The position numbers and the translations under genes were made by a program. From Thauera sedimentorum (GTDB lineage Bacteria; Pseudomonadota; Gammaproteobacteria; Burkholderiales; Rhodocyclaceae): a DNA stretch of 64,000 bases. Where the stretch lies: assembly GCF_014489115.1 (NCBI RefSeq), contig NZ_JACTAH010000001.1:248001-312000 (forward strand), in the 5' to 3' direction. Under the pieces are notes generated by a model. That model did no database searches. It saw nothing but the letters and a program-made list of their open reading frames with translations, and was not told the origin of the DNA. Below are positions 10,379 to 60,333 of the stretch, piece by piece (position 1 is the first letter of the stretch; each line of letters opens with the position of its first letter).

Positions 10379-10615
10379 TCACAGCAGATCGTATTCGGTG
10401 AGCTTGCGGCGCAGGGTGTTGCGGTTGATGCCGAGCATGTCGGCCGCGGCGGTCTGGTTGCCGCCGGCCTGGCGCAGGACGAATTCGAGCATCGGGCGTT
10501 CGACGTTGCGGATCACCATCTCGTAGATGGCCGCCGGCCGTTCGCCGTCCAGGTCGCGGAAGTACTGGTCTAGGGTGCGCTGGATGGAATCGGCGATGTC
10601 GTTGCTACGGCTCAT
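10379..10615 (-). CDS. fis: Fis-family nucleoid DNA-binding protein
   Basis: A 78-aa protein whose C-terminal half, [20 protein letters not shown], is the Fis helix-turn-helix. Fis bends DNA and modulates growth-phase expression. The ATG at 10615 sits in an ATGA overlap with the dusB stop, so translation is coupled to dusB. The dusB-fis pair is the same arrangement as in enterobacteria. The betaproteobacterial form is shorter at the N-terminus than E. coli Fis (98 aa), which is usual for this group. Confidence 0.95.
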
Positions 10616-14296: not shown

Positions 14297-18636
<4,340 letters not shown>

Positions 18637-38847: not shown

Positions 38848-38923
38848 GCCGGCATAGCTCAGTTGGTAGAGCAGCGCATTCGTAATGCGAAGGTCGGGGG
38901 TTCGACTCCTCTTGCCGGCACCA
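38848..38923 (+). tRNA. tRNA-Thr (anticodon CGT)
   Basis: 76 bases including an encoded CCA. The acceptor stem GCCGGCA pairs with TGCCGGC; the D arm is GCTC-AGTTGGTA-GAGC; the anticodon loop is TTCGTAA with CGT; the T arm is GGGGG-TTCGACT-CCTCT with two G-U pairs. It closely resembles E. coli thrW, a frequent integration target for phages and islands. The sequence after it changes character, so it is the likely attB/attL locus. Confidence 0.96.
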
Positions 38924-44878: not shown

Positions 44879-44928
44879 CTCTTCGGGGATGCGTGTTGGT
44901 GTCGGTCCAATTGGGATTGGAGGGGCGT

Positions 44929-45642
44929 GTGACTACCTCTATTGAGAATTGTCAGCGAGTCCTGTCTGCTGTCGGCACGTTGCACCGTCATGGTTATGAG
45001 GGGCTTCGTGTTATGCCTGTTCTGGATGAAGAGCGGTGGATTGCCTTTATTGGGCCAAGACTGGCGTTTTCCTCGCTCGATGGCGCTTACGCGGCTCCAG
45101 ACCTACGCGGACGTTGTGTGCGGTTCTCAATGGGGTATAGCCTTCCCGAAACGAATGATTGCTTCGAGCTCTTGAGGGCGCTTTATGCCGGGGTATGCGT
45201 TCAGGCAGATGTTGGGAGTGCCATGCAGCTTTCCCCCGAAGCTGACAAGAGATTCAGGGAGTGGTTGGAGCACTCTAGGCTACGTGACCCAGAGTACAGC
45301 GCATGGTACTTCTCACTGGGAGGAAGGCTATTTTTCGCCAGAGATGCCCTGCCATACCGAGAAGACGTTGAAGTTCCCGCATCACGGCGTGGCCCCGTGT
45401 TCTTTGCAGAGTTTCGCCCATCTGAGAACGGAATTGAGCGATACCGTCGTGATGAGTCTCTATCTCGGCCGCCTGGTGGGAAGGCGTTTTCTGACGGAGG
45501 AAGGAGGATTGCCAATCCGGAACTAAGACTTGCGGAAGCGCGCCCGACAGACGCGCCAAGCCTGCGGTGGAGTTCCTCTGGAAGCTCGGGAAATGAGAGG
45601 GCTCTCGATGAGTGGTATGAAGATTATGTGCATCGAGATTGA
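44929..45642 (+). CDS. Unknown 237-aa protein within the defence operon
   Basis: Not recognised. The GTG at 44929 is preferred (GGAGGGG just upstream; the frame extends to a GTG at 44893). The protein is soluble-looking with ALDEWYEDYVHRD at the C-terminus; no HKD, Walker or helix-turn-helix motif is seen. It lies between the helicase and SNF2 genes, 50 bases after the first and 42 before the second. Its GC is lower (31 of 60 bases at 45001-45060 against 37 of 60 at 46021-46080 in SNF2), suggesting separate acquisition. Specificity or anti-toxicity partner roles are guesses. Confidence 0.7.
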   Translation: MTTSIENCQRVLSAVGTLHRHGYEGLRVMPVLDEERWIAFIGPRLAFSSLDGAYAAPDLRGRCVRFSMGYSLPETNDCFELLRALYAGVCVQADVGSAMQLSPEADKRFREWLEHSRLRDPEYSAWYFSLGGRLFFARDALPYREDVEVPASRRGPVFFAEFRPSENGIERYRRDESLSRPPGGKAFSDGGRRIANPELRLAEARPTDAPSLRWSSSGSSGNERALDEWYEDYVHRD

Positions 45643-45684
45643 GTATCGAGTTCTCGGGCACGATTTGCATGATTTTGGGTTTTG

Positions 45685-48534
45685 ATGATGACCTTTCAGT
45701 ACCAACCCGGCTCCCTCGTCTCGGCCCGTGGCCGCGAGTGGATAGTCCTTCCACAGTCCTCCGACGACACCCTGCATCTTCGCCCGCTCGGCGCTACCGA
45801 CGACGACGCCACGCTCATCTACCTGCCCATCGAACCTGGGCCGGTAGGGCCGGCGACCTTCCCCTGGCCCACGGCTGAGCAGGCATCGAATTTCGCCGCA
45901 GGCCAACTTCTCCGTGATGCACTGCAACTTAAGCTGCGCACCGGCGCAGGCCCGTTCCGCAGCTTCGGCAACATCGCTGTCGAGCCGCGCGCCTACCAGC
46001 TGGTGCCCTTGCTGATGGCGCTCAAGCACGAGGTGGTGCGCCTGCTGATTGCGGACGACGTGGGTATCGGCAAGACCATCGAAGCCGCGCTCATCGTCCG
46101 TGAGTTGCTCGACCGTGGCGAAATCAATCGCATGGCCGTGCTGTGCCCACCGCACCTGTGCGAGCAATGGCAGCGCGAGCTGAAGGAGCGCTTCCACATC
46201 AATGCGGTTGTGGTGCGCAACACCACCGCCAACCGCCTGGAGCGCGGCTTGCCAGCGAACCAGTCGGTGTTCGAAGCCTATCCCTTCACCGTGGTCAGCC
46301 TGGACTACATCAAGTCCGACCGCCGTCGGGACGAGTTTCAGCGCGCCTGCCCGGAGTGCGTGATTGTTGATGAAGCGCACACCTGCACCTTCAGCGGCCA
46401 GGGCAAGCAGAAGCGCTACACCCTGCTGAAGGGGCTGGCAGAAGACAGGTCGCGCCACATGGTGCTGCTTACCGCCACGCCACACTCGGGCGACGAGGAA
46501 GCCTTCTACAACCTGCTCGGGCTGCTTCACCCGGAGTTCCGTGAACTCAAGGACATCCCCCCGGACGCCCGCCGTCCGCTGCGCGAGCAGCTCGCCAACC
46601 ACTTCGTACAGCGCCGCCGCCCGGACATCGAAGAGTGGAATGACCGCAATGTCTTTCCCGAGCGCTTTTCGGCTGAAATCACCTACAAGCTCACCGGTGA
46701 GTGGGGGCGGTTGTTCGATGAGGTGCTCGACTACGCCCGCGACCTGGTCGAGCGAGCCGAGGGCAAGGGACTCCTGCAGCAACGCATGAGCTGGTGGGCT
46801 GCGCTTGCCCTGCTGCGCTGCATCTCCTCTTCGCCAGCCGCGGCCGTCAATGCCCTGCGCACACGCTTGCAGGGCACTGCCCCGAGTGAGGACACTGACG
46901 CTGCGGAGATCGAACTCACGCAGGAAGAGGCAGAGGAGCAGGGCCGCGAGCGGGTGCTCGACGGTGTCGAGGACGACCTCTCCACCCAGGACATCGAACC
47001 GGGAGCCCGCACCGAAGACGGCGCCCGTCTTGCCGAATTGATTGAGCGTGCCGCGGGCTTGGCCGGCCCATCCAAGGACCCCAAGCTCAAGAACCTCATC
47101 GAACACCTCAAGGAGCTCACCGAAGCCGGGTTTCAACCGGTGGTGTTCTGCCGTTACATCGCTACCGCGCACTACGTGGCCGAGCATCTGCGCACTGTCT
47201 TCCGCAACCATCAGGTCACGCCGGTAACTGGGCAGTTTGCCCCTGCCGAGCGCGAAGCCGCCGTCGAAGCCATGGGTGAAGCCGAGCAGCGCATTCTGGT
47301 GGCAACGGATTGCCTGTCCGAAGGCATCAACCTGCAGAACCTCTTCACCGCCGTGGTGCACTACGACCTGTCGTGGAACCCCACCCGCCACGAGCAGCGA
47401 GAAGGCCGTGTGGACCGCTTCGGCCAGAAGGCGCGCGAAGTGCGCACCACCATGCTCTACGGCCAGGACAACCCGGTCGATGGTGCGGTGCTGCAGGTCA
47501 TCCTGCGCAAGGCCGAGAGCATCCGCAAGGAGCTCGGCGTGCTGGTGCCCATGCCCGACGACGAAGGCAAACTCACCCAGGCTCTGGTCGGCGCCGTGTT
47601 GTTGCGCAAAGGCACAACGACTAACCGCATGCCGCAATTGGGCCTCGACTTTGGAGACCCCGAGCAGTCCATCGACACCGCGTGGACCTCGGCGCGCGAC
47701 AAGGCTGCCAAGAACCGCACCCTGTTCGCGCAACGCCGCCTCAAGCCCGAGGATGTGCTGCCCGAATGGCAGAAGACGCTGGCCGTGCTCGGTGGCGAGG
47801 CCGATGTGGCGCGCTTCGTCAAACGGGCCGCCCAGCAGCTCGGCGCCCCGCCGGAAGAGACCACCAAGGCCGGCGTGACGCACTGGAAACTCCACGCCTC
47901 CAGCCTGCCCTCGGCAGTGCGTGAGCGCCTGGAGGGCGAGGGGCTCGCGGGTACGCTGCGCATCGACTTCCATCAGCCGCCGGCGCCGGGCACGCAGTTC
48001 ATCCATCGCACCCATCCGCTCGTCTCGGTGCTGGCGGATTTCCTGCTCGAGACTGCGCTGGACGATGCCGCCGTCGAAACCGACAGCGCACTCGACGCAG
48101 TCGCCCGTGCGGGCGCCATCTTCACCGAGGCCGTCGAGACACGCACCACCGTCCTGCTGGTCCGCCTGCGCCACCAGCTCACCGTCAGCCACCGGGGTCA
48201 GTCCCGCCTGCTGCTGTGTGAGGAAACCCTCACGGTCGGTCTGGAGGCCGGTAGCGAAGCGACTCCGCTGGCGGAGGCTACCGCCCGCGCCCTGATGGCC
48301 GCCGAGCCTGCCCGCAACATGCCGCCGCCGCTGCGCGACCAGCACATCCAGCGCGCGCTGGCGCAGTTGCCGGAGCTTCAGCCCACGCTGGAAACACTCG
48401 CCCGTGCCCGCGCCCAGCAGCTGCTCGACGACCATCGTCGTGTGCGGGTGGCGTCCGATGCGCGCGGTGAATACCGGGTCACGCCCAGCCTGCCGGTGGA
48501 CGTCATGGGTGTCTTCGTTCTCATCCCGGCCTGA
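45685..48534 (+). CDS. SNF2-family helicase/translocase (DrmD-like)
   Basis: A 949-aa SNF2 ATPase. ADDVGIGKTIEAALIVREL (Walker A Lys about 130), IVDEAHTCTFSGQGKQ (DEAH 229-232) and LTATPHSGDEEAFYNLLGLL (motif III), then helicase C with VATDCLSEGINLQNLF and NPTRHEQREGRVDRFGQ (motif VI). A C-terminal ~300 residues lack recognised motifs. A SNF2 enzyme of this size directly before an Eco57I-class methyltransferase is the arrangement of drmD-drmMI in class 1 DISARM. Three start codons occur in a row (TTG-ATG-ATG at 45682, 45685 and 45688); the ribosome site is weak. Likely a DNA translocase acting on unmodified DNA. Confidence 0.88.
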   Translation: MMTFQYQPGSLVSARGREWIVLPQSSDDTLHLRPLGATDDDATLIYLPIEPGPVGPATFPWPTAEQASNFAAGQLLRDALQLKLRTGAGPFRSFGNIAVEPRAYQLVPLLMALKHEVVRLLIADDVGIGKTIEAALIVRELLDRGEINRMAVLCPPHLCEQWQRELKERFHINAVVVRNTTANRLERGLPANQSVFEAYPFTVVSLDYIKSDRRRDEFQRACPECVIVDEAHTCTFSGQGKQKRYTLLKGLAEDRSRHMVLLTATPHSGDEEAFYNLLGLLHPEFRELKDIPPDARRPLREQLANHFVQRRRPDIEEWNDRNVFPERFSAEITYKLTGEWGRLFDEVLDYARDLVERAEGKGLLQQRMSWWAALALLRCISSSPAAAVNALRTRLQGTAPSEDTDAAEIELTQEEAEEQGRERVLDGVEDDLSTQDIEPGARTEDGARLAELIERAAGLAGPSKDPKLKNLIEHLKELTEAGFQPVVFCRYIATAHYVAEHLRTVFRNHQVTPVTGQFAPAEREAAVEAMGEAEQRILVATDCLSEGINLQNLFTAVVHYDLSWNPTRHEQREGRVDRFGQKAREVRTTMLYGQDNPVDGAVLQVILRKAESIRKELGVLVPMPDDEGKLTQALVGAVLLRKGTTTNRMPQLGLDFGDPEQSIDTAWTSARDKAAKNRTLFAQRRLKPEDVLPEWQKTLAVLGGEADVARFVKRAAQQLGAPPEETTKAGVTHWKLHASSLPSAVRERLEGEGLAGTLRIDFHQPPAPGTQFIHRTHPLVSVLADFLLETALDDAAVETDSALDAVARAGAIFTEAVETRTTVLLVRLRHQLTVSHRGQSRLLLCEETLTVGLEAGSEATPLAEATARALMAAEPARNMPPPLRDQHIQRALAQLPELQPTLETLARARAQQLLDDHRRVRVASDARGEYRVTPSLPVDVMGVFVLIPA

Positions 48535-48561: not shown

Positions 48562-51500
48562 ATGGCTCGCCGTAACAACCACGAACTCGCCTTTGCCGCC
48601 CTGTCCATCGAAGGCGCGCTGCTCGCACCGGACTTCCTCAACAAGGTCGCCCACCTGGACGCGAAGTCCGACCAGAACGAAACCGACTACGACATCCCCC
48701 GCGGTCTCAAGCTGCGCGACGAAGTCGGTCGCTACTGGAAGATTGCCCAGAACCTCTGGCAGGATTTTTCTGTCCGGCGCGAACGGTCGGACGTGGACAG
48801 CCACGCGGTCACGGTGCGCGATTTCCTCGAACCCTTCTGCCGCCAGGTGCTGGGCTTTGCAGACATGCGCCCGGTGGGGCAAGTGACCCTGGATGAGCGC
48901 ATCTTTCCAATTGGCTTTGCAGCCGGCGAGGGCAGGGTACCGCTGGTTTTCGCCGCCCACGACCAGGGGCTGGACAAACCCAGCACCCGCCATGGCGATG
49001 GCGTGCGCCGCCGCTCGCCCTTCCTGCTCGCCCAGGAATATCTAAACGCCAGCAGCGACTGCCTGTGGGCCGTGGTCAGCAACGGCCTCAAGCTGCGCAT
49101 CCTGCGCGACAACCCCAGCCTCACCCGCCCGGCCTACATCGAGGCCGACCTGGAAGCCATCTTAAATGAGGGCCTCTACCCGGATTTCACCGCCCTGTGG
49201 CTGCTCGCCCATGCCTCGCGCTTCGGCAAGGTCGGCGCCGAGCCCGCCGACTGCGCCCTGGAGCGCTGGCGCAACACCGCGCAGGAAGACGGCATCCGCG
49301 CCCGCGACCGCCTGCGGGTAGGCGTTACCGAAGCCCTGCGCGCGCTTGGCACCGGTTTCCTCGCCCACAAGGACAACGCCGAGCTGCGCCGCCGCATCGA
49401 GGCCGGCGAACTCAGCACCCAAGCCTATTTCGAGCAACTGCTGCGCCTCATCTACCGCTTCATCTTCCTCGCCACCATCGAAGACCGCGAACTCGTCTTC
49501 GCCCCGGACGCCACCCCGGAAGCCCGCGAACGCTACTTGTCCGGCTACAGCCTGACCCGCCTGCGTCAGCTCGCCGCCCGCCGTCGCAGTTACGACCGCC
49601 ACGCCGACCTGTGGCAGGTACTCACCATCACCTTCGCTGGCCTGGGCCGCGGTCAGCCGGCGCTGGGCCTGCCCGCCCTCGGCGGGCTTTTCGAAGCCGC
49701 CCAATGCCCGGACCTGGACTGCGCCCGCCTGGAAAACCAGGCCCTGCTGTCTGCCCTCTTCAGCCTGTGCTTCTTCCGCGATGGGGCGGCGCTCTCGCGG
49801 GTGAACTATCGCGACATGGACTCCGAAGAGCTCGGCAGCGTGTATGAGAGCCTGCTGGAGCTCGTACCCCAGGTCACACTCACCGGCGGCGCGCGCCGTT
49901 TCGGCTTCGTCGGCGACGAGGAAGAGGGCAGTACCAAAGGCAACGCCCGCAAGCTCACCGGCTCCTACTACACCCCGGACAGCCTGGTGCAGGAACTCAT
50001 CAAGAGCGCCCTGGAGCCGGTCATCGCCCGCACCTTGGCGGAGAACCCGCAGGAGCCGGTCCAGGCCCTGCTGGCACTCACCGTCTGCGACCCGGCCTGC
50101 GGCTCCGGCCACTTCCTGCTCGCAGCCGCCCGCCGCATCGCCGATGAAGTCGCCCTGCTGCGCGCCCCGGAAGGCAACCCCAGCCAGCAGGACTTCCGCC
50201 ATGCCCTGCGCGACGTGGTGGCCCACTGCATCTACGGCGTGGACAAGAACCCCATGGCGGTGGAACTCGCCCGCACCGCCCTCTGGCTGGAAGCCTACAC
50301 CCCCGACCGGCCGCTCACCTTCCTCGATGCCCACCTGCGCTGCGGCGATGCCCTGCTCGGCGTGCTGGATGAAGCCATCCTGCAAGACGGCATCCCGGAC
50401 AAAGCCTTCAATGCACTTTCCGGCGACGACAAGGAGGTGGTCAAGCGCATCAAGAAGGCCAACCGTGACGCGCTGAAGAGCATCGTCAAGGCGAAGGAGA
50501 GATCCCGCCAGATGCTGAGCCTGGACCTGGACGAAAACGTCGACGCCGCCAGCTTCGAGGCCCTGCCGGACGATACGCTGGAAGCTCTGCAGGCCAAGCG
50601 CGCCGCCCATGCGGCGCTGGAAGCAAGCATTGCTGCCTCCAAAGCCCGGCTGGCGGCGGATATTTTTGTAGCCGCCTTCGTGCTGCCCAAGACCGTGGAG
50701 ACGGAAGCCCGCATGCCGACCAGTCAGGACCTGTGGTTAGTGCTGAACGGCGATGCCCCGCGCCCCGGCATCGCCGAGTCGGCCCATGCGGCCGCCCAGT
50801 CCGCGCAAGCCTTCCACTGGTGGCAGGCGTTTCCTCAGGTCAAGGCCCGGGGTGGCTTCGATGTGCTGCTGGGAAATCCGCCGTGGGAGGTCTCGCAATT
50901 CACTGATGAAGAGTACTTCGGCGCGACTTTGCCCTCCATTTCTGGAATGCGTTCTGACCACAGAAAGCGAGCGATTTCTGAACTGAGGGTGGGGAATCCC
51001 AGGCTTTGGTCGGCATATCAGAAGGCCCGCCGCTTTCAAGAGTCCTTAAATGTCTTCTTCAAGGAGTCAGGTAGATACCCTAAAGCAGGCATCGGTCGGA
51101 GTAATCTTTTCGGCCTCTTTGTGGAGTCTATTGCGCACCTGATGGATGCTAAAGGGCGCTCTGGCTTTATCGTCCCTACCGGATTTGCAACTGACGACAG
51201 TAGCAAATTTCTATTCGAGAGTATTATCGAGCGCAAGCTTCTTGTAAGTTTGTTTGACTTTGAGAATCGGGATGGGATTTTCCAAGAGGTCCATCGGAGC
51301 TATAAGTTTAGTCTCGTGACGCTAGGGAGTTCTGAAGCAACAGAGCTTGCCTGTTTCGCAACGCGTGTTTCCGATTTGGCTGACGGCAGAAGACGTTTTG
51401 TTTTGAGGGCACAGGATTTTTCCCTGATTAATCCTAATACTATGAATTTGCCTGTTTTTAGAACGCAGCGAGATTCAGAGCTGACAATGGCCATCTATCG

Positions 51501-52419
51501 TAAATGGCCAGTTTTGTCGAATAAAAACTCTCTGGAGAATCCTTGGTGCATTGATATAAAAAGAATATTCAATATGGGTGTTCCGGAGGTTGCTGCTCTT
51601 TGCTCGAATAGCCCGGGAAGCTCGAGGGTTCGAATGTTTGAAGCGAAAATGTTTCACCAGTACGATCATCGCTGGTTTGGCTATGGTGCGGGATCTGATG
51701 ATAGAGGTAAGACTGACCCATCCTTTCTTGTTGCTGGTCGGTATTATATTGACAGGTCTGTCGTTGAGTCAGAGTTGCACGGGCGCGATGGATCCAGGCA
51801 GTGGCTGCTTGCGTGGCGGGACGTCTGTCGCTCGACCGATGAGCGAACTGTAATTGCTTCTGTCATCCCAAGGGTTGCAACCGACTTCACCATCCGTGTC
51901 GGTTTTCTTAATCACGGTGCGGAGTTCTCGGCTTGCTTTCTCGCAAACTTGAATTCACTGGTGCTTGACTTCATTGCGAGGCAGAAGATTGGCTCAATAC
52001 ATCTGTCGGATTACATAACGTACCAGCTCCCGTTTATTTCGCGTTCTGCATATGGTGAGGGTGAAATAGCATTTATTCTCCCCCGCGTCCTCGAACTCAC
52101 CTACACCGCTCACGACCTGAAGCCCTGGGCGGCAGACCTCGGCTACGACGGTCCGCCTTTCCCCTGGAACGTTGAGCGCCGCGCCCAACTGCGCGCCGAA
52201 CTCGACGCCTACTATGCCCGTCTCTACGGCCTGACCCGCGACGAACTCCGCTACATCCTCGACCCCGCCGACGTCATGGGCGAGGACTACCCCAGCGAGA
52301 CTTTCCGGGTGCTCAAGAACAATGAGTTGCGCGAGTTCGGCGAGTACCGCACGCGGCGACTGGTTTTGGCGGCGTGGGATGCAATGGAACAGGACTGGGC
52401 GGGGCGGACAGCTGCATGA
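48562..52419 (+). CDS. Eco57I-class N6-adenine DNA methyltransferase (DrmMI/PglX-like)
   Basis: A 1,285-aa protein. SAM-binding motif I is VCDPACGSGHFLLAAARRIA (Asp about 510) and the catalytic motif IV is LLGNPPWEVSQF (NPPW 772-775), so an active adenine methyltransferase is expected. The large N-terminal part (1-480) has no visible PD-(D/E)xK site, so it is more like DrmMI or PglX than a type IIG restriction enzyme. Residues about 785-1170 (50,900-52,080) contain the presumed target-recognition segment and are markedly AT-richer than the flanks. Probably marks self DNA for the SNF2 and DUF1998 helicases. It overlaps the RT-nitrilase start by ATGA. Confidence 0.9.
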   Translation: MARRNNHELAFAALSIEGALLAPDFLNKVAHLDAKSDQNETDYDIPRGLKLRDEVGRYWKIAQNLWQDFSVRRERSDVDSHAVTVRDFLEPFCRQVLGFADMRPVGQVTLDERIFPIGFAAGEGRVPLVFAAHDQGLDKPSTRHGDGVRRRSPFLLAQEYLNASSDCLWAVVSNGLKLRILRDNPSLTRPAYIEADLEAILNEGLYPDFTALWLLAHASRFGKVGAEPADCALERWRNTAQEDGIRARDRLRVGVTEALRALGTGFLAHKDNAELRRRIEAGELSTQAYFEQLLRLIYRFIFLATIEDRELVFAPDATPEARERYLSGYSLTRLRQLAARRRSYDRHADLWQVLTITFAGLGRGQPALGLPALGGLFEAAQCPDLDCARLENQALLSALFSLCFFRDGAALSRVNYRDMDSEELGSVYESLLELVPQVTLTGGARRFGFVGDEEEGSTKGNARKLTGSYYTPDSLVQELIKSALEPVIARTLAENPQEPVQALLALTVCDPACGSGHFLLAAARRIADEVALLRAPEGNPSQQDFRHALRDVVAHCIYGVDKNPMAVELARTALWLEAYTPDRPLTFLDAHLRCGDALLGVLDEAILQDGIPDKAFNALSGDDKEVVKRIKKANRDALKSIVKAKERSRQMLSLDLDENVDAASFEALPDDTLEALQAKRAAHAALEASIAASKARLAADIFVAAFVLPKTVETEARMPTSQDLWLVLNGDAPRPGIAESAHAAAQSAQAFHWWQAFPQVKARGGFDVLLGNPPWEVSQFTDEEYFGATLPSISGMRSDHRKRAISELRVGNPRLWSAYQKARRFQESLNVFFKESGRYPKAGIGRSNLFGLFVESIAHLMDAKGRSGFIVPTGFATDDSSKFLFESIIERKLLVSLFDFENRDGIFQEVHRSYKFSLVTLGSSEATELACFATRVSDLADGRRRFVLRAQDFSLINPNTMNLPVFRTQRDSELTMAIYRKWPVLSNKNSLENPWCIDIKRIFNMGVPEVAALCSNSPGSSRVRMFEAKMFHQYDHRWFGYGAGSDDRGKTDPSFLVAGRYYIDRSVVESELHGRDGSRQWLLAWRDVCRSTDERTVIASVIPRVATDFTIRVGFLNHGAEFSACFLANLNSLVLDFIARQKIGSIHLSDYITYQLPFISRSAYGEGEIAFILPRVLELTYTAHDLKPWAADLGYDGPPFPWNVERRAQLRAELDAYYARLYGLTRDELRYILDPADVMGEDYPSETFRVLKNNELREFGEYRTRRLVLAAWDAMEQDWAGRTAA

Positions 52420-55400
52420 CTATCGTTCGTGATAAATATCGGGTTCTGGCCCCGCGAGCGAGCTTGCTACACGATGTGGTGGTGCTCGCGCAGGCGTGGA
52501 AGAAGTCTCACACATACATCCGCCGACACAACTGGTACGCCGATACCCTTGAGCTGGATTGTTCGGCATTCGACCTGGACTCGAAACTGGGGCAATGGTC
52601 GAATGAGCTAAAAGATGGGGGTTATCGTCCGAACCCAGCCTGGTTGGTTCCTTCCCCAAAGAATGGCGCATGGGGATTCGGTGCCGAGTTCTCTGGCGGC
52701 TGGGGAGCTGCGCCGACCAAAGATGGTGGTCGTCCCGTTCTTCGCCCACTCGCCCACCTTGGCATCCGCGAGCAGACTGTTTCCACCGCTGCGATGCTGT
52801 GTCTTGCAGATTGCATCGAAAGCGCACAGGGGAACACGACCTTGTCAGCTGAGGAAGCCCTCTCCGCCGGGGTGTTCAGTTACGGCAACAGGCTCTACTG
52901 CAGATGGTCGGATGACAACCGGCGAGCCCACTTCTCTTGGGGCAACGCAACGTCCTACAGTCGATACTTCCAAGACTACCAACAGTTCGTTGAGCGCCCA
53001 AATGTACTGGCGCGCAAGGCTGAAAGCGAGCATCGCGATGCTGCCGTCTTCATCGTCAAGTTGGACCTCAGCGCCTTCTATGACAACGTAGATTTAGGCT
53101 TGTTGGTCGACAAGCTCAAGAAAACCTATTCCAGCTATCGTCGACGCCATCCGGATGTTCCGGCTGCGGACACTCGGTTTTGGCGCTTGCTGAGGAGAAT
53201 TCTAAGCTTTACGTGGAGAGAAGCAGACCGTGACCTGCAGGGACTCTTCCGAGACTCTGTTCTTCCTGCTGGTTTGCCTCAAGGACTTCTGGCCAGCGGG
53301 TTTCTGGCGAATGCCTACATGCTGGAGTTCGATGAAGCAGTGGGGGCGATTGCCAGTGCGGGTGGCTCCGTTGGTGAACATGAACCCGTAACAGTTCACG
53401 ATTACTGCCGGTACGTTGATGACCTGCGTCTGGTCGTCTCAGTGAGAGACTGGCCAACTCCTGAAGCATTGATTCGGGAGGTCATCCCCCAATGGGTCCA
53501 AGCTCAACTGGAAGCGACGACTGGCGCGGGGCGTCTCCGTATCAATCCGGAAAAGACCGAGGTTGAGCCATACCGGGCTGTGGGCGGCGACGCAGGGACC
53601 GCTGCACGCATGAAACTGCTTCAACATCAGTTGAGTGGGCCCTTCGATGTGGTCGCGCTGCAACAGGTCGAGGCTGGGTTGAATGGCCTTCTTGCCTTGG
53701 CGGAGCTCGGCGCGGCAACTGCGAGTTCGCCGGGCGACTCCGCTGCATCACCTCTCTTGGAGTCCGTGGCGCGACCCAAGCTGGAAGTCCGGGACGACAC
53801 GCTGACTCGGTTCTCGGCGTATCGCCTGACAAGGTCCCTCCGCATGCGTCGGAGCATGACCAACCTTGCGGAAGCATTGCCGGAGGGCGGAACGGCGAAG
53901 GATGCGTTGCTTCATGACTTCGAGGTAACCGCGCGCCGGTTGGTTGCCGCTTGGTCGGTCAATCCTTCTCTTGTTCAGGTATTGCGGTATGCGATGGACC
54001 TTTTCCCCAGCCCCACGTTGTTGGAGCCGGTCATTGAGGGCATCACGAGCAAACTAAACCAGCAAGACGTACCGGAGGACGAAGAGCGGGTCGTCTACTA
54101 CGTGCTTGCTGAACTGTTCAAGGCAGGGGCGACGGAAACGGGTAGGAGGGCTTCCCGTGATGCTGCGTTCGAAATCGGCGATGCTCAGGCTTATCGGGCT
54201 ACCCTTGTTCGTCTAGCGCGGAGGCTTCTTGAGACCGGTTCGAGAGTGCCTTGGTACGTCAACCAACAGGCTGCACTGTTGCTGGCCTCGTCTGGCATCC
54301 CGATGGATGAGCTGCCCTCCATATGCGAGTTGTGCTTTCATCGTGCGCTCAACGACTACGTGGCGGGAGAAAGCCGCTGTCGAGAATTGCCCGCGCGCGA
54401 TGAGGTCGCTGTTTCATTGGTCGGGTTTCAGCTTGCGCCGGACCACAAACGCTACGTTGCTTGGTTCCGAAATTTTTCAAGAGACCGCCCACGGCTGCAG
54501 GTGGCTGAAGCAGTTCGGCTGATAGGGCATGCTGACCACGACCTCCTCGCAGCACTTGTGCGGAGCGGAAGACGCCGTTCTGTGCCTGAATACCTCCGGG
54601 CTTATCTCGACTCCCGCCGGTCATCCTCTTCAACTCAACTTGATACGGATACATGGATTCCGTTCCTCAAGGTTATTACACATCCGTGTGCGGTCTTTTC
54701 CGAAGAGAACGCTCTCCTGCAACTCGCAAGGCAGCTGACCAGTTTGCCGAAGGCTGCTCTGAAGAATCCCCATAAGCTAACGCCGGCAAGCCTCCGTGTG
54801 TGTTGCAGTGATTGGGACAGGCTCAAGGACCCAAGAGAAGATGTGCTGCGACTCGAATGGTTGGATACGTCTAATCCTGACCCGGCTTACGAAACACCAG
54901 CGTGGTGTGCGAAAGGTCAGGGGTGGATGTACGCCTTTGGGAGACTCCTGAGGGCCGCAGCGACAGGGCAGCCGGACTTCACCGCACGAAACTGGCTCCT
55001 TAGCGAGGATGCGGCGGGTTGGTATCGTGGCATCCGGAGTACTTGGCAAAGTCGGCGGACAGGCATGCTCCACACTTCGACCGCGCTGGTAGGGACGACC
55101 TCTGCCATCACGCCTTGGTTTTCCGCTCTATTGCTGGAACTGCTAAGGTGGCCAGGCATAGCGGAGGTGAATGGAGCGAGTCTCTTCTCTGACCGTGACA
55201 GTGTCGAGAGCTTCGCAAGCTTGGTTTCGGCGCGATTAGAGGTGCAGTCGGAAATCTACGGTCGCAGTTCAGATATTCCAGTTTATCGATACCCTGTCGA
55301 ATGGCCGCTCCGGGATAACCGTTGCCTGAGAGTCGTTCAAGTGCAGGGTCTAATGCCCGCGAGTTCGGATTTCGGAGATGGGCTTGAGGGGCTCAGCGTT

Positions 55401-56213
55401 GCAGCCTACCGGGAGCGTCATCGTAATCACACTGCGACGCTATTGCATCTCGCGTACCGTCACATCCAAGCCCGCGATGCGGTTTTGGGGCCTCAAACCA
55501 GTCCACGAGTTGATTTGGTCATCTTTCCTGAGTTTGCAGTCCATGTCGATGACCAAGACATCATGCGTGCATTCTCGGATGCCACGGGGGCGATGTTGTT
55601 CTATGGCCTAGTGGGTGCGACGACCGCTGGAACAGCGGGCACTGTCAATGCTGCTCGATGGCTTGTTCCGCAAAGGCGTGGTGGGAGGCGTTCATGGGTC
55701 GAGGTAGACCAAGGGAAGTGGCATCTCACAGAGGAGGAGGGCTATTTGGGCGTGTCTCCATGGAGGCCGCATCAGGTGGTTATCGAGTTACAGAGCCAAA
55801 GGGAACGACCATATCGAATCTCTGGCGCGATTTGTTACGACGCTACCGACCTTGCGCTAGCCGCGGACCTGCGGGACGAAACGCATATGTTTGTCGTCGC
55901 GGCGATGAACAAGGACGTGAAAACCTTCGACAGCATGGTCTCGGCACTTCGTTATCACATGTACCAGCACGTACTTATTGCGAACTGTGGCGAATATGGT
56001 GGCTCGACGGCCCAGGCGCCGTATGACATCGAACACAAGCGATTGATTGCTCACTCTCATGGGGGCAATCAACTTGTGATTGCGGTGTTCGATGTCGAGA
56101 TGGATGACTTTGGTCCCGCGCTAAGGGCTGCAGTTTCGCCAGTAACGGTAATGAAGCGGGTGAAGGAGAGAATTGGCAAGACGCCGCCGGCAGGGTTAGG
56201 TCGGCGCCCTTGA
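52416..56213 (+). CDS. Reverse transcriptase-nitrilase fusion (DRT1 / UG1-like)
   Basis: A 1,265-aa protein. RT domain: FIVKLDLSAFYDNVD (motif A, Asp about 217), LPAGLPQGLLASGFLANAYM (motif B, PQG 288-290) and YCRYVDDLRLVV (YVDD 333-336), so the polymerase metal ligands are intact. The middle (about 420-1000) is probably helical repeats with no recognised motif. The C-terminal nitrilase fold has the full Glu-Lys-Cys triad: VDLVIFPEFAVHVDD (Glu 1039), DQGKWHLTEEEGYLG (Lys 1101) and SGAICYDATDLAL (Cys 1140). RT-nitrilase fusions are DRT type 1 (unknown-group RT UG1), known anti-phage proteins. The ATG at 52416 overlaps the methyltransferase stop (ATGA); the longer frame start at 52374 lies inside that gene. 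GC about 50% (30 of 60 at 53041-53100), lower than the neighbours. Confidence 0.9.
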   Translation: MTIVRDKYRVLAPRASLLHDVVVLAQAWKKSHTYIRRHNWYADTLELDCSAFDLDSKLGQWSNELKDGGYRPNPAWLVPSPKNGAWGFGAEFSGGWGAAPTKDGGRPVLRPLAHLGIREQTVSTAAMLCLADCIESAQGNTTLSAEEALSAGVFSYGNRLYCRWSDDNRRAHFSWGNATSYSRYFQDYQQFVERPNVLARKAESEHRDAAVFIVKLDLSAFYDNVDLGLLVDKLKKTYSSYRRRHPDVPAADTRFWRLLRRILSFTWREADRDLQGLFRDSVLPAGLPQGLLASGFLANAYMLEFDEAVGAIASAGGSVGEHEPVTVHDYCRYVDDLRLVVSVRDWPTPEALIREVIPQWVQAQLEATTGAGRLRINPEKTEVEPYRAVGGDAGTAARMKLLQHQLSGPFDVVALQQVEAGLNGLLALAELGAATASSPGDSAASPLLESVARPKLEVRDDTLTRFSAYRLTRSLRMRRSMTNLAEALPEGGTAKDALLHDFEVTARRLVAAWSVNPSLVQVLRYAMDLFPSPTLLEPVIEGITSKLNQQDVPEDEERVVYYVLAELFKAGATETGRRASRDAAFEIGDAQAYRATLVRLARRLLETGSRVPWYVNQQAALLLASSGIPMDELPSICELCFHRALNDYVAGESRCRELPARDEVAVSLVGFQLAPDHKRYVAWFRNFSRDRPRLQVAEAVRLIGHADHDLLAALVRSGRRRSVPEYLRAYLDSRRSSSSTQLDTDTWIPFLKVITHPCAVFSEENALLQLARQLTSLPKAALKNPHKLTPASLRVCCSDWDRLKDPREDVLRLEWLDTSNPDPAYETPAWCAKGQGWMYAFGRLLRAAATGQPDFTARNWLLSEDAAGWYRGIRSTWQSRRTGMLHTSTALVGTTSAITPWFSALLLELLRWPGIAEVNGASLFSDRDSVESFASLVSARLEVQSEIYGRSSDIPVYRYPVEWPLRDNRCLRVVQVQGLMPASSDFGDGLEGLSVAAYRERHRNHTATLLHLAYRHIQARDAVLGPQTSPRVDLVIFPEFAVHVDDQDIMRAFSDATGAMLFYGLVGATTAGTAGTVNAARWLVPQRRGGRRSWVEVDQGKWHLTEEEGYLGVSPWRPHQVVIELQSQRERPYRISGAICYDATDLALAADLRDETHMFVVAAMNKDVKTFDSMVSALRYHMYQHVLIANCGEYGGSTAQAPYDIEHKRLIAHSHGGNQLVIAVFDVEMDDFGPALRAAVSPVTVMKRVKERIGKTPPAGLGRRP

Positions 56214-56249
56214 CATAGCGCTTGGTGTTCTGGTTTCAAGGAGAGGCAA

Positions 56250-57608
56250 TTGGCTGGCAACTCTTGGTTGGCGTTGATGTCGGGGCGCCGGATAGGTCGT
56301 CTCGACGAAAGTGTTGAGTTCTGTGGGCCTCGCTCCCCCTTTCAACGTGATTATGACCGAATTCTTTTCTCATCTGCGTTTCGGCGAATGCAGGACAAGA
56401 CGCAAGTGTTTCCTTTGGCAAAGAACGATTATGTTCGTACACGATTAACGCACAGCCTGGAAGTTTCATCTGTTGGGCGTTCTCTCGGTGTGATGGTCGG
56501 TGATGTGCTGCTAAAGAAGTATTCGGAACTGAATTCTGCGGGGCTGCAAGTTTCCGATTTCGGGACCATTGTGGCTGCTGCTTGCCTATCGCACGATATT
56601 GGCAATCCACCCTTCGGGCACGCCGGAGAGTCAGCCATCCAGGATTGGTTCCGGTCGCCCGATGTTGACGGGAGGTACGTGTCGGGGCGAGGCATGCAGG
56701 ATGCTCGTCAAGAGGACCTGAAGTCATTCGAAGGGAATGCGCAGGGATTTAGAATTCTTACGCGCCTTCAGTTCCCAAGCCAGGTTGGAGGTATGCAGCT
56801 TTCTGCTGCGGTGCTCGGAGCGTTTGCAAAGTACCCGCGCAGGTCAGTTGTCGACTTGCCGGGGACTGGCGGCATCAGCGGTAAGAAGTTCGGTTTCTTT
56901 TATGCGGACGAAGAGAGTTTTCGCCAGGTTGCCGAAGTTCTGGAACTGCCTGAAAAGGCCGACGGCGCTTGGTATCGGCACCCACTTGCGTTCCTGATGG
57001 AAGCTGCAGACGATATTTGCTATCGAATCATGGATGTCGAAGATGGCTTCCGAACGGGGTGCTTACATTTCGATGAGGTGCGGTGTTTATTTGAAGGCGT
57101 ACTCGACGAACCATCTCTCCGCCGTTTGGATGACATTCCTTCCAACAAGCACAAGGTGGAGTACCTGAGAGCCAAGGCGATTGACCTTGCTATTCGGGAA
57201 GTCGTGGCGGTATTCCTTGAGCGCGAGGAAGCCATGTTGACGGGTGAGTTCGACGACGACCTCATGAGTCACGTCGCCCACGCAGCTGAGTTTCGTGCGT
57301 TCAAAGACCTCGCTCGCGAAAAGGTCTACTCGGCTCGCGCCGTCGTTGAAGTCGAGGCGTGCGGATACAAAGTCCTGGGAGGGCTGCTTGATGCATTCTT
57401 GGCGGCCATAGACGACTATGCATCAGGGGGTGGGAAGAAAGCATCTCCCAAATCGAAGACGATGCTCAGGTTGCTTCCAGAGGGGAGCTATAGAGAGGAC
57501 TTGGATTTCTACGAACGCGCCTTGGTTGCCAGCGATGCGGTTTCTGGGATGACCGACTCGTTCGCCTTGATGATGTATCAGAGGATTCACGGCATAAGCC
57601 TGCCGTGA
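56250..57608 (+). CDS. dGTPase-like HD-domain dNTP triphosphohydrolase
   Basis: A 452-aa HD protein: PFQRDYDRILFSSAFRRMQD, then RTRLTHSLEVSSVGRSLGVM (His about 68) and AACLSHDIGNPPFGHAGESA (His 115, Asp 116), and later LMEAADDICYRIMDVEDG. These are the metal ligands and signature of deoxyguanosine triphosphate triphosphohydrolases. It starts with TTG at 56250, with AAGGAGAGG four bases upstream, and the N-terminus (WLALMSGRRIGRLDES) aligns by eye with dGTPases. It lies 36 bases after the RT gene and shares its lower GC (28 of 60 at 56401-56460). dGTPases that deplete dNTPs are known anti-phage enzymes; with an RT upstream it could tune or consume the RT's substrate pool. Confidence 0.9.
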   Translation: MAGNSWLALMSGRRIGRLDESVEFCGPRSPFQRDYDRILFSSAFRRMQDKTQVFPLAKNDYVRTRLTHSLEVSSVGRSLGVMVGDVLLKKYSELNSAGLQVSDFGTIVAAACLSHDIGNPPFGHAGESAIQDWFRSPDVDGRYVSGRGMQDARQEDLKSFEGNAQGFRILTRLQFPSQVGGMQLSAAVLGAFAKYPRRSVVDLPGTGGISGKKFGFFYADEESFRQVAEVLELPEKADGAWYRHPLAFLMEAADDICYRIMDVEDGFRTGCLHFDEVRCLFEGVLDEPSLRRLDDIPSNKHKVEYLRAKAIDLAIREVVAVFLEREEAMLTGEFDDDLMSHVAHAAEFRAFKDLAREKVYSARAVVEVEACGYKVLGGLLDAFLAAIDDYASGGGKKASPKSKTMLRLLPEGSYREDLDFYERALVASDAVSGMTDSFALMMYQRIHGISLP

Positions 57609-57736
57609 CTGATTGTATGTGGTACGTGAGCGGCTCCCCGAGAGTGTGGGCTCTGGGTGGTCGATTTGGTGAAAATGGCATAGGACAACGAACCGGCGAC
57701 AAAGGACTGGGAGTACGAGATGGAGACCGTAAGCGA

Positions 57737-59515
57737 ATGAACGAACGCCTGTTCAAGGAAGTGAACTACACGCTCAGCGTGCTGCTGAATGAAATCAAGC
57801 TTGGCGTCATCGGTCTGCCGGACATCCAGCGGCCGTTCGTGTGGCCGAACGCCAAGGTCCGTGACCTGTTCGACTCGATGTACAAGGGCTACCCGGTCGG
57901 GTATTTCCTGTTCTGGCAGACGGGGGCGGAGGAGGTTGGTACCAAGGGCATCGGCCAGGGTGAGAAGCAGAAGGCGCCGTCCCTGCTCATCGTCGACGGC
58001 CAGCAGCGCCTGACCTCGCTGTACGCGGTGGTGATGAGGGAGCCCGTCCTGCGTGACAACTTCGAGCACGAGTACATCCGGATTGCGTTCAATCCCTTGA
58101 AAGGCGAGTTTGCAGTGCCGGATGCCACCACCGAGAAGCAGCCGGAGTTCATCGCTGATATCTCCGAAGTGTTTGCGCGGCCTTCGCACAAGACCATCAA
58201 CGAATACGTCAAGCGTCTTCGGAATGCGCGCGAGGCGACCGGGGGCTCTCTGAGCGATGAAGAGGAGGAGCGAGTGGCCGATGCCATCGGTCGCTTGGTG
58301 GGTTTGAGCGGCTTCCCCTTTGTCGCCCTGGAGCTCACCCAGGCCGCCAACGAAGAGCAGGTGGCCGACGTCTTCGTGCGCATCAACAGCGAGGGCAAGA
58401 AGCTCAACCAGTCGGACTTCATTCTCACGCTGATGTCGGTGCATTGGGACGAAGGGCGCACCGACCTGGAGCGTTTCAGCGTGGCGACGCGCAAGCCGCT
58501 CGCCGGAAACGGGCCCAACCCGCTGAACCCCATCTTTCAGCCCGAGCCCGACCAACTGCTGCGGGTCGATGTCGGCGTGGCTTTCCGGCGCGGCCGGCTT
58601 GAGCACGTGTATTCGATTCTGCGCGGCAAGGATCTGCGCACCGGCGAGTTCTGCCCGCTGCGACGTGCAGAGCAGTTCGAGCGCCTGAAGGCGGCGCAGG
58701 CGAAGGTGCTGAGCCTCACCCACTGGGCCGATTTCCTTAACGTGGTGCGTGCGGCGGGCTATCGGCACCTGCGCTATGTGAGTTCGGAGGGCGCGCTCAT
58801 CTTCGCGTACCAGCTCTACCTCATCGGCCGGACTGAATTCGGCGTGGAGCCTTTTGCGCTGAAGCAGGCGGTGGCCCGGTGGCTGTTCATGTCGCTGCTG
58901 ACCGGGCGGTATACGAGCTCGCCCGAGTCCCAGTACGAAACCGACCTGAAGTTGTTGCCCGAAGGCAACGACCCCAAGGCTTTCGTGCGGGCGCTGAGCG
59001 AGGTGGAGGCGGCTACGCTGACGGACGACTACTGGGCCAAGTCGCTGCCATTGGCGCTGGCCACCTCGGCGGCGCGGGGTCCCAGCCTGTTCGCCTACTA
59101 CGCCGCGCTGGTGTTGTGCGAGGCAAAAGCGCTGTTCTCCAAAGGCAAGGTTGCCGATCTGCTCGACCCGCCGGCCATCGGCAACAAGAAACCGCTGGAG
59201 CGCCACCACCTGTTTCCGAAGCGCTACCTGCACAAGATCGGCGTCAAGGAGCTGCGGGACACCAACCAGATTGCCAACTATGCGCTGGTGGAATGGGACG
59301 ACAACATTGCCATCTCCGACATCCCGCCCAAGGAGTACTGGCCCAAGTACGCGGCCCGGTTCTCCTCGGATGAGCTCAAGGCCATGATGCACTGGCATGC
59401 CTTACCAGAGGGGTGGCAGGAGATGGACTACCAGAGCTTCCTGGTTGCCCGGCGGCCGATGATTGCGCAGGTCATCAAGCAGGGCTATCAGAAGTTGGTC
59501 GGGACGGAGGCTTGA
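57737..59515 (+). CDS. DUF262/GmrSD-type endonuclease (type IV restriction-like)
   Basis: A 592-aa protein. N-terminal DUF262 domain: IGLPDIQRPFVWPNAKVRDL, LLIVDGQQRLTSLYAV (DGQQR 87-91) and FVRINSEGKKLNQSDFILTL. C-terminal HNH-type DUF1524-like region: LERHHLFPKRYLHKIG (His 490-491) and NQIANYALVEWDDNIAISD. The combination is that of GmrSD-like NTP-dependent nucleases acting on modified phage DNA and related DUF262 defence proteins. The ATG at 57737 starts 128 bases after the dGTPase stop, so it may have its own promoter. GC returns to high values (41 of 60 at 58441-58500). Confidence 0.85.
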   Translation: MNERLFKEVNYTLSVLLNEIKLGVIGLPDIQRPFVWPNAKVRDLFDSMYKGYPVGYFLFWQTGAEEVGTKGIGQGEKQKAPSLLIVDGQQRLTSLYAVVMREPVLRDNFEHEYIRIAFNPLKGEFAVPDATTEKQPEFIADISEVFARPSHKTINEYVKRLRNAREATGGSLSDEEEERVADAIGRLVGLSGFPFVALELTQAANEEQVADVFVRINSEGKKLNQSDFILTLMSVHWDEGRTDLERFSVATRKPLAGNGPNPLNPIFQPEPDQLLRVDVGVAFRRGRLEHVYSILRGKDLRTGEFCPLRRAEQFERLKAAQAKVLSLTHWADFLNVVRAAGYRHLRYVSSEGALIFAYQLYLIGRTEFGVEPFALKQAVARWLFMSLLTGRYTSSPESQYETDLKLLPEGNDPKAFVRALSEVEAATLTDDYWAKSLPLALATSAARGPSLFAYYAALVLCEAKALFSKGKVADLLDPPAIGNKKPLERHHLFPKRYLHKIGVKELRDTNQIANYALVEWDDNIAISDIPPKEYWPKYAARFSSDELKAMMHWHALPEGWQEMDYQSFLVARRPMIAQVIKQGYQKLVGTEA

Positions 59516-60333
59516 TGGCAGCCATCCTCGGGTCTCCTGCTCAGGAAGGCTCGGCAGAGCTCTCTCTTGAGCAGACGCGTGTTGCAAAGGCAGCGGCGGA
59601 TGCGGGGTTCGACCTGACGCCCGAGCAGCAGGGAAGCTGGACACTCTTCCGTTCGACTGCCTTTCCCGCTTGGGTGGGGCTGGCCGTGCAGGAGCCCGGG
59701 ATCTACAGCCTCGGCTTGTCTGATGCAGCGGTTGGGCAGCGGCTTGGCGTTGAGCTTGGGTTGGAACCGTCTGCGGAGCCGGGGCCCTGGGCGCTGCGGT
59801 TTGATGGGGTGGAGGGGTACCTGCGGCTGCACCGCATCCTGCTGCGGGTCGCCGCCGTTTCGCGCGTCGTTCACCAGGAGGGACTGAGGGCGTTCGTCGC
59901 GGCGACTCGAACGCCTCCGAGCGGCACGGAAGCCGTCCGCGAGGTCGTTCAGCGCGTCGGTCAGGACATCTTCCGGCGGTCGCTGATTGAATACTGGGGC
60001 GGGCGGTGCGCCGTGACGGGCCTGGATGTGGTCGAGGTGCTGCGCGCATCGCACATCAAACCGTGGGCGGACTGCGAGAACGATGCCGAGCGCCTGGATG
60101 TGTTCAACGGCCTGTTGCTGGCACCGCACCTGGATGCCCTGTTCGACAGGGGCCTGGTGACCTTCTCCGATGCGGGGCAACTGTTGCGTTCTCCGCAGTT
60201 GAGTGACCGCCAATGGGGACTGCTTGGGATGGGCGGAGTGGAGGCGCGGGCGGAATCACTTGCCGACGGTCATCGGGAGTACTTGCGGTGGCACCGGTCC
60301 AGAGTGTTCCGGGGTGGCGCTGGCTGCGGTTGA
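59515..60333 (+). CDS. HNH endonuclease
   Basis: A 272-aa protein with an uncharacterised N-terminal 150 residues and a C-terminal HNH_2-type domain: CAVTGLDVVEVLRASHIKPW (His about 180), DVFNGLLLAPHLDALFDRG. The start overlaps the DUF262 stop by one base (TGATG), so translation is coupled and the two probably act together. Similar HNH proteins occur beside restriction modules. Confidence 0.85.
   Translation: MAAILGSPAQEGSAELSLEQTRVAKAAADAGFDLTPEQQGSWTLFRSTAFPAWVGLAVQEPGIYSLGLSDAAVGQRLGVELGLEPSAEPGPWALRFDGVEGYLRLHRILLRVAAVSRVVHQEGLRAFVAATRTPPSGTEAVREVVQRVGQDIFRRSLIEYWGGRCAVTGLDVVEVLRASHIKPWADCENDAERLDVFNGLLLAPHLDALFDRGLVTFSDAGQLLRSPQLSDRQWGLLGMGGVEARAESLADGHREYLRWHRSRVFRGGAGCG

What the first reader, a model, noticed from the sequence alone, without database searches (positions are those of the whole stretch)
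52416..57608. RT-nitrilase paired with a dGTPase-like enzyme as a low-GC two-gene cassette
Seen: the dGTPase gene starts 36 bases after the RT, on the same strand, with a strong ribosome site. Hand counts of GC in 60-base samples are 30 for RT (53041) and 28 for dGTPase (56401), against 37 for SNF2 (46021) and 41 for DUF262 (58441). Known: dGTPases and DRTs are each anti-phage on their own. Inference: the two were acquired together and may work as one system, in which a dNTP-consuming polymerase and a dNTP hydrolase act on the same pool, or one controls the toxicity of the other. I do not know a described RT-nitrilase/dGTPase pair.
Basis: partly seen in the sequence, partly recalled or inferred. 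Interest (0 to 1): 0.9.

Follow-up and report, generated by a model that had tools for sequence, protein, structure and literature searches.

The report
Two cargo genes in ARMADA operon
The reverse transcriptase and the dGTP-destroying enzyme are real neighbours, but they look like two separate anti-phage genes lodged at the same swap-in site of a larger defence operon on a mobile element, rather than one dedicated two-gene system.

Summary
A full-length DRT1 (RT-nitrilase, 52416-56213) is followed 36 bases later by a dGTPase gene (56250-57608); both are poorer in GC than most genes around them. The reading as one co-acquired system is mostly unsupported. Both sit in a variable slot between methyltransferase and HNH genes of an operon with the gene order of ARMADA Type I, on an element integrated in tRNA-Thr. 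In 34 such operons an insert of 400 bp or more lies in this gap in 27, against 1 of 28 and 3 of 45 at the other two gaps. The slot takes DRT1 (10 of 34), dGTPase (3), HEC-03, PD-T4-4 and others. dGTPase occurs there without an RT in two genomes; none of 79 DRT1 loci viewed elsewhere (of 234 found) has an adjacent intact dGTPase. So the neighbourhood is older than this genome, but the dGTPase was lost without loss of the RT. Most likely: two independent defence enzymes, layered on ARMADA.

The parts
38848..38923 (+). tRNA-Thr(CGT); its 3' half is repeated about 27 kb downstream, beyond the window, next to an integrase-like gene: left end (attL) of an integrative element
   Evidence: ARAGORN; exact 40-base direct repeat (45 by eye) at L181:3321, i.e. 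G000:C1 about 314320; ORF L181:1759-3201(-) named integrase-like from its sequence by recall, no family search
39584..44878 (+). YprA-like (DruE-like) DEAD-box helicase with MZB domain and weak C-terminal DUF559 match; ARMADA Type I first gene
   Evidence: Pfam DEAD, MZB; PADLOC DruE1 301.6 bits; gene order as described in PMC12458937 section 5
44893..45642 (+). 249-aa ORF of unknown family, low GC (55.5), between YprA-like and SNF2 genes: the only insert of 400 bp or more at this junction among 28 loci
   Evidence: (no match in Pfam, PADLOC, NCBIfam)
45682..48534 (+). SNF2/BrxHII-like helicase (DpdE/DrmD-like), ARMADA second gene
   Evidence: PADLOC DpdE 724.8 bits; NCBIfam DISARM_DrmD 349 bits, below its cut-off of 610
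48562..52419 (+). N6-adenine methyltransferase (PglX/DrmMI-like), ARMADA third gene; 50962-52041, perhaps its target-recognition part, is at 47.9% GC
52416..56213 (+). DRT1 (Drt1a): RT with YVDD (D335/D336), C-terminal nitrilase (C1140), priming-serine candidate S407; start overlaps the methyltransferase stop
56250..57608 (+). HD-type dGTP triphosphohydrolase (PRK01096 family), TTG start with AAGGAGAGG upstream
57737..59515 (+). DUF262 (GmrSD_N) protein; in two other genomes it directly follows a slot dGTPase
59512..60333 (+). HNH endonuclease (HNH_2), 3' end gene of the operon; marks the far edge of the cargo slot
52416..59511 (+). Cargo slot between methyltransferase and HNH: here DRT1, dGTPase and DUF262

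Best explanation
The window holds an ARMADA Type I-like operon on an integrative element in tRNA-Thr. The gap between its methyltransferase and HNH genes is a slot into which whole anti-phage modules come and go while staying packed on the same strand. Here the slot holds two: a DRT1 and a dGTPase. Shown: the gene order, the slot and its varied contents elsewhere, catalytic motifs in place, DRT1 without dGTPase and dGTPase without DRT1 in the same slot of other genomes, and a dGTPase scar beside a full-length DRT1 in the nearest relative. Inferred: each works as it does elsewhere. ARMADA restricts phage directly. DRT1 makes untemplated A-rich DNA on itself, is held quiescent in filaments, and on infection stops the phage by abortive infection through its nitrilase. 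The dGTPase starves phage replication of dGTP. They give layered, additive protection; neither needs the other.
For: Slot: inserts of at least 400 bp at methyltransferase-HNH in 27 of 34 loci, YprA-SNF2 1 of 28, SNF2-methyltransferase 3 of 45 (27/34 against 4/73, Fisher p 7.5e-15; with the 9 loci holding only the SMC-like gene counted as empty, 18/34 against 4/73, p 6.5e-8). Cargo: DRT1 in 10 of 34, dGTPase in 3, plus HEC-03 B/A (L115), PD-T4-4_A (L177), PDC-M04 A/B beside DRT1 (L031), helicase-nuclease beside DRT1 (L034, a locus outside the 34). Independence: 0 of 79 DRT1 loci with a dGTPase in the flank held; dGTPase-DUF262-HNH without RT in G261 (L105) and G924 (L176); Fisher p = 1.0 for RT with dGTPase. 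The ARMADA label needs at least 5 changes on the DRT1 tree (quick method; unchanged without the four rows of broken frame). Vogesella: full-length RT, dGTPase reduced to a recognisable 27 residues, score 71 against a maximum of 51 in 2000 shuffles and 53 in 3000 real tiles.
Against: The Vogesella scar shows that RT-dGTPase adjacency is older than one genome, so the pair is not a pure one-off; a small lineage could have evolved a functional link. No activity was measured. Only 79 of 234 DRT1 relatives could be viewed, and a relaxed search for scars was made in 11 DRT1-bearing ARMADA loci only. ARMADA membership rests on gene order and profile hits; no YprA tree was built. The ARMADA experiments I saw described were with Type II (PMC12458937). 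Co-transcription was inferred from packing, not measured. The tallies pool related genomes.
Confidence: 0.8

Rival explanations
1. A two-gene RT-dGTPase defence system: the dGTPase shapes the nucleotide pool that DRT1 uses, for example by removing dGTP so that the DNA adducts stay A-rich and filaments assemble properly, or it tempers DRT1 toxicity.
For: 36-base gap and strong ribosome site; scar of the same dGTPase next to the RT in Vogesella; in the DRT1 studied in E. coli, dGTP gave shorter, aggregated filaments and dATP is preferred (PMC13275509 section 6).
Against: No other intact pair in 79 DRT1 loci; the slot dGTPase occurs without RT in two genomes; in Vogesella the RT is full length after loss of the dGTPase, so the dGTPase does not look like a required antitoxin or partner there; the DRT1 studied worked when expressed alone and did not slow growth without phage (PMC13275509).
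Confidence: 0.08
2. Slot cargo is functionally tied to ARMADA: DRT1, dGTPase and the other modules are plug-in effectors triggered by ARMADA sensing or co-regulated with it.
For: Same slot, same strand, start-stop overlap (methyltransferase-RT ATGA) and dGTPase-DUF262 overlap in L105; the ARMADA label changes at least 5 times on the DRT1 tree; named defence modules in the slot.
Against: The same kind of module occurs alone elsewhere (68 of 79 DRT1 loci have no ARMADA methyltransferase in view); ARMADA with an empty slot exists (7 of 34); co-transcription alone would explain the packing.
Confidence: 0.15
3. The dGTPase is a stray housekeeping dgt gene with no defence role.
For: It falls in the general PRK01096 family and not in the NCBIfam anti-phage dGTPase model (192.8 bits against a cut-off of 400); its nearest relatives outside the slot mostly look like ordinary chromosomal dgt genes (neighbours named by recall, no family search; one, L162, lies beside a Cas9-like ORF).
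Against: The host has a second, divergent dGTPase homologue elsewhere; three slot dGTPases group together (98/97) and keep their place before DUF262, so the gene seems kept in the operon; HD region intact.
Confidence: 0.2

Closest known systems
DRT1 / Drt1a (RT-nitrilase; PMC13275509, PDB 9YFD)
   Same: Full-length homology (phmmer E = 1.2e-170), RT YVDD, nitrilase cysteine, serine at the priming column in a six-member alignment.
   Different: No drt1b; sits in an ARMADA operon; followed by an intact dGTPase in this genome only, of those viewed.
[quoted passage not shown] 2022, as cited in a passage of PMC12489045)
   Same: An RT of this class linked to a phosphohydrolase is a described theme.
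   Different: I could not read Mestre et al. (not held), so I cannot say whether any of those links is a separate dGTPase gene beside DRT1.
dGTP triphosphohydrolase, PRK01096/NF002205 (solved relatives 3bg2, 7tu0)
   Same: Profile above cut-off, full-length alignment with the HD motif.
   Different: Not in the NCBIfam anti-phage dGTPase family by score; located in a defence operon.
ARMADA Type I (PMC12458937, Bell et al. 2025 preprint)
   Same: YprA-like, BrxHII/SNF2, PglX-like methyltransferase in that order; the reversed order in two cyanobacterial plasmids (L131, L132) also agrees with the paper.
   Different: The 3' HNH gene and the cargo slot are not named in what I read (a word search of the main text gives HNH once, in a reference, and dGTPase and reverse transcriptase 0 times); supplements were not read.
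Auxiliary and backup effectors inside BREX core loci (PMC12839542, passages only)
   Same: Extra effector genes inside a core defence operon.
   Different: The passages speak of nucleases in BREX loci; here whole named systems, including DRT1, at one fixed junction of ARMADA.

Membership tests
DRT1 (Drt1a) | Profile match over the whole protein | tested here: met
   PADLOC PDLC03745 1396.5 bits, residues 10-1261
DRT1 (Drt1a) | RT YxDD, nitrilase cysteine and conserved priming serine | tested here: met
   D335/D336, C1140, S407 invariant in the six-member MAFFT alignment; S402 of the DRT1 studied matched to S407 through L011 by eye, while the phmmer alignment places a gap there instead
DRT1 (Drt1a) | Untemplated protein-primed synthesis, filament formation, nitrilase-dependent abortive infection | not testable with these tools
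   Known for the DRT1 studied in E. coli MG1655 from PMC13275509
dGTPase (NF002205) | Score above the curated cut-off; HD motif | tested here: met
   454.5 against 439 bits; HD region aligned to 3bg2
NCBIfam anti-phage dGTPase (NF041026) | Score above the curated cut-off | tested here: not met
   192.8 against 400 bits
ARMADA Type I | YprA homologue, then BrxHII-like helicase, then PglX-like methyltransferase | tested here: met
   order as in PMC12458937 section 5
ARMADA Type I | C-terminal Vsr-type nuclease on the YprA homologue | tested here: inconclusive
   DUF559 match at 1699-1747, 20.1 bits against a cut-off of 20.6; that DUF559 is Vsr-like is recalled
ARMADA Type I | Place in the ARMADA I clade of the YprA tree | not tested
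   No YprA tree was built
Two-gene RT-nitrilase/dGTPase system | Recurrent intact adjacency in independent genomes | tested here: not met
   0 of 79 DRT1 loci viewed, of 234 found; one scar, in the nearest relative
Two-gene RT-nitrilase/dGTPase system | Each gene depends on the other | tested here: inconclusive
   Slot dGTPase without RT in two genomes, full-length RT without dGTPase in Vogesella: argues against, but no function was measured

The most novel reading that the evidence does not exclude
ARMADA Type I operons carry a dedicated docking site, between methyltransferase and an HNH component, where complete defence modules (DRT1, dGTPase, HEC-03, PD-T4-4 and others) are swapped and put under ARMADA's expression or sensing. 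In the window two of them, DRT1 and dGTPase, are stacked and share the dNTP pool, so that removal of dGTP keeps DRT1 adducts A-rich.
Probability: 0.15. Interest if true: 0.75.

Novelty: new variant of a known kind. Interest (0 to 1): 0.45.

Why it matters
The pair itself is probably ordinary co-residence. The site is more interesting: one junction inside a conserved restriction-like operon repeatedly receives different complete anti-phage systems. That gives a way to find new defence genes (read what sits between the methyltransferase and HNH genes of ARMADA operons) and a way to test whether embedded modules are merely co-expressed or act as effectors of the host operon. It also adds an HNH gene to the neighbourhood of ARMADA Type I in Pseudomonadota (in view in 34 of 46 loci examined; the other 12 include contig ends and the reversed order of cyanobacteria). 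What is in print: a search for dGTPase with reverse transcriptase and nitrilase gave one paper, which has dGTPase only in its reference list; DRT1 with dGTPase and defense gave none; ARMADA with DISARM and reverse transcriptase gave none. A wider search (19 papers, 12 seen as a listing only) was not read through. Mestre et al. 2022, the main survey of this RT class, was not held and is cited for RT-phosphohydrolase links, so novelty of the pair cannot be claimed.

Tried and rejected
Rejected: joint acquisition inferred from shared low GC, because slot genes are low in GC in the other loci compared too. Rejected: drt1b as a missing third part; a small gene follows DRT1 in three plasmid loci of Gammaproteobacteria (L008, L010, L011; taken for drt1b by position and size only) and not here. 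Rejected: the pair as pure chance in one genome, because of the Vogesella scar.

Led nowhere: phage records (no DRT1 match); IMG/VR for DRT1 (none) and for the dGTPase (one hit at 38%, L182, not followed); 186 order-level genomes searched for DRT1 at E <= 1e-100 gave the window alone; 150 relatives gave 4 genomes with a match at E <= 0.001, the window's own, one other with a DRT1 (G001) and two short stretches. The dGTPase trio's single origin is probable, not firm: 98/97 in the careful tree, but long branches meet, quick trees with rows left out did not always star it, and AU tests against three alternatives gave p = 0.023, 0.053 and 0.019. Co-occurrence counts mix loci found through the methyltransferase with loci found through DRT1; in the methyltransferase-found part (25 slots besides the window; searches), DRT1 is in 1 and dGTPase in 2.

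What was not viewed: of genomes with a methyltransferase match besides the window's own, 18 of 21 were fetched, 5 of 6, the 4 new ones and the 1 new one; of 80 plasmid records, 13 were viewed (chosen by me from the 40 listed). Rows dropped: duplicates L001, L003, L017 (= L096), L133 (= L105), L004/L007/L013 (= L037), and L012 (partial) from the RT tree; L023 and L110 (methyltransferase score under 300 bits) and L108, L109, L111, L123, L124 (weak or partial) from the slot count; 12 loci without HNH in view from the 46. L023 (near copy of L019) and L034 (HNH not in view) carry DRT1 but are outside the 34. L094 (partial DRT1 then HNH on a 4.7-kb contig) was not counted as ARMADA. The family profiles were built from members already found by tblastn.
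Full report
What is there. The RT gene (52416-56213) and the dGTPase gene (56250-57608) are complete, on the same strand, 36 bases apart, with AAGGAGAGG before the TTG start of the second. The RT is DRT1 (Drt1a) from end to end (PADLOC 1396.5 bits; solved relative 9YFD), with YVDD, the nitrilase cysteine and a serine at the priming column. The dGTPase belongs to the general NF002205 family (454.5 bits against 439) and not to the NCBIfam anti-phage dGTPase model (192.8 against 400).

Surroundings. Upstream lie a YprA/DruE-like helicase (39584-44878), a small unknown ORF, an SNF2 helicase (45682-48534) and an N6 methyltransferase (48562-52419) whose stop overlaps the RT start; downstream lie a DUF262 gene and an HNH gene. 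Helicase, SNF2 and methyltransferase are in the order given for ARMADA Type I by Bell et al. (PMC12458937; abstract, sections 5 and 26 and passages read). A tRNA-Thr at 38848-38923 has its 3' half repeated exactly (at least 40 bases) about 27 kb downstream, next to an integrase-like ORF, so the operon seems to ride on an integrative element. The host is close to Pseudothauera: genome G001, same genus, has a contig of the same length as that of the Pseudothauera nasutitermitis locus L037.

DRT1 elsewhere. A scan of genome contigs gave 234 relatives, of which the best 79 loci could be read. None has a dGTPase in the flanks held; 72 of 79 have at least 1.5 kb downstream. Eleven of 79 sit in the same place as here, behind the methyltransferase and before DUF262 and/or HNH (L017, L018, L019, L020, L021, L023, L031, L034, L035, L046, L047). 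They form two distant groups of DRT1 (about 59-78% and 38-39% identical to the window), and the tree of 83 rows needs at least five changes of the ARMADA label (quick method; same count without four rows of broken frame).

ARMADA elsewhere. The methyltransferase was sought in 399, 369, 5, 324, 61, 28 and 64 genomes, which overlap, and in plasmids (13 of 80 matching records viewed). Of 46 loci examined, those found through DRT1 included, 34 show methyltransferase and HNH together. The gap between them holds an insert of at least 400 bp in 27 of 34; the YprA-SNF2 gap in 1 of 28 (the window) and the SNF2-methyltransferase gap in 3 of 45. Contents of the 34: DRT1 in 10; dGTPase without RT in 2; AAA ATPases of one family in 3 (L097, L102, L115; L115 scored as HEC-03 B/A); PD-T4-4_A in 1 (L177); a UvrD-like helicase in 1 (L116); DUF262 with an SMC-like gene in 1 (L178); the roughly 660-aa SMC-like gene alone in 9; nothing in 7. 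Passages of PMC12839542 describe auxiliary effectors inside BREX loci, a comparable theme.

The dGTPase. In two genomes, G261 (L105) and G924 (L176), a dGTPase 52-53% identical to the window's lies between methyltransferase and DUF262, with no RT; a relaxed search found no RT-like stretch better than E = 0.26 in either locus. These three group together (98/97), with the warning that long branches meet. Fourteen of the nearest dGTPases outside the slot were viewed: from ORF starts alone, named by recall, most look like chromosomal dgt genes in ordinary surroundings; one (L162) lies beside a Cas9-like ORF. Within the 34 slots: RT and dGTPase together 1, RT only 9, dGTPase only 2, neither 22; Fisher p = 1.0, also without the window.

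The scar. In Vogesella fluminis, whose RT is the closest (78%), the 189 bases between RT stop and HNH encode a 27-residue stretch that matches residues 368-394 of the window's dGTPase with score 71. The best of 2000 dinucleotide shuffles is 51, the best of 3000 real tiles from other loci is 53, the best of 30 other dGTPases is 40, and the best of nine other proteins used as queries is 48. It came up first at E = 0.001 over the 18.5-kb locus, in a search relaxed to E <= 1 of 11 DRT1-bearing ARMADA loci; the other 68 DRT1 loci were not searched that way, and closer looks behind the RT of seven of the other ten gave nothing comparable. It means that a dGTPase like the window's stood right behind this RT in a shared ancestor, and was then lost while the RT stayed open over 1266 codons. 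The same locus keeps a fragment of DUF262 before the RT, so this slot is reshuffled.

Mechanism. From PMC13275509 (abstract, sections 5, 6, 9, 10 and passages): the DRT1 studied there, in E. coli MG1655, adds untemplated A-rich DNA to its own serine, forms dormant filaments, and needs both RT and nitrilase activity for abortive infection; it does not slow growth without phage and protects without DRT1b; dGTP gives shorter, aggregated filaments. That dGTPases protect by depleting dGTP is recalled and was not looked up. ARMADA is reported to restrict phage by a direct, non-abortive mechanism (PMC12458937, abstract; Type II tested). The simplest account is three layers, ARMADA, DRT1 and dGTPase, each working alone. 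A shared-pool link between the last two remains possible at about 8%.

Verdict. Observation right; genes right; 'two-gene system' mostly unsupported.

Noticed in passing
window 38848-38923 and L181:3321 (about 66.3 kb in window coordinates): tRNA-Thr with a direct repeat of its 3' half next to an integrase-like ORF (named by recall): the defence island looks like an integrated element of about 27.5 kb.
   Followed up: partly
window 44893-45642: Unknown 249-aa low-GC ORF between YprA-like and SNF2 genes, no family match; the only insert of 400 bp or more at this junction among 28 loci.
   Followed up: no
window 50962-52041: A stretch of the ARMADA methyltransferase is at 47.9% GC inside a gene otherwise at 63-67%, suggesting a swapped target-recognition region.
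   Followed up: no
L021:5922-7919 and relatives: A roughly 660-aa SMC-like gene lies behind the ARMADA methyltransferase in 20 of 46 loci (weak LmuB match, 36 bits) and is missing in the window.
   Followed up: partly
L096, reverse orientation 10438-10650 and 14631-16627: In Vogesella fluminis the HNH gene is split by an IS-like insertion (named by recall), and a DUF262 fragment precedes the RT.
   Followed up: partly
L058 (Massilia sp. BSC265): The DRT1 frame carries a stop in this relative: possibly a decayed copy.
   Followed up: no
L162:10678-13746: The dGTPase of genome G124, one of the nearest relatives outside the slot, lies beside a Cas9-like ORF followed by CRISPR-like repeats (read by eye from ORF starts).
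   Followed up: no
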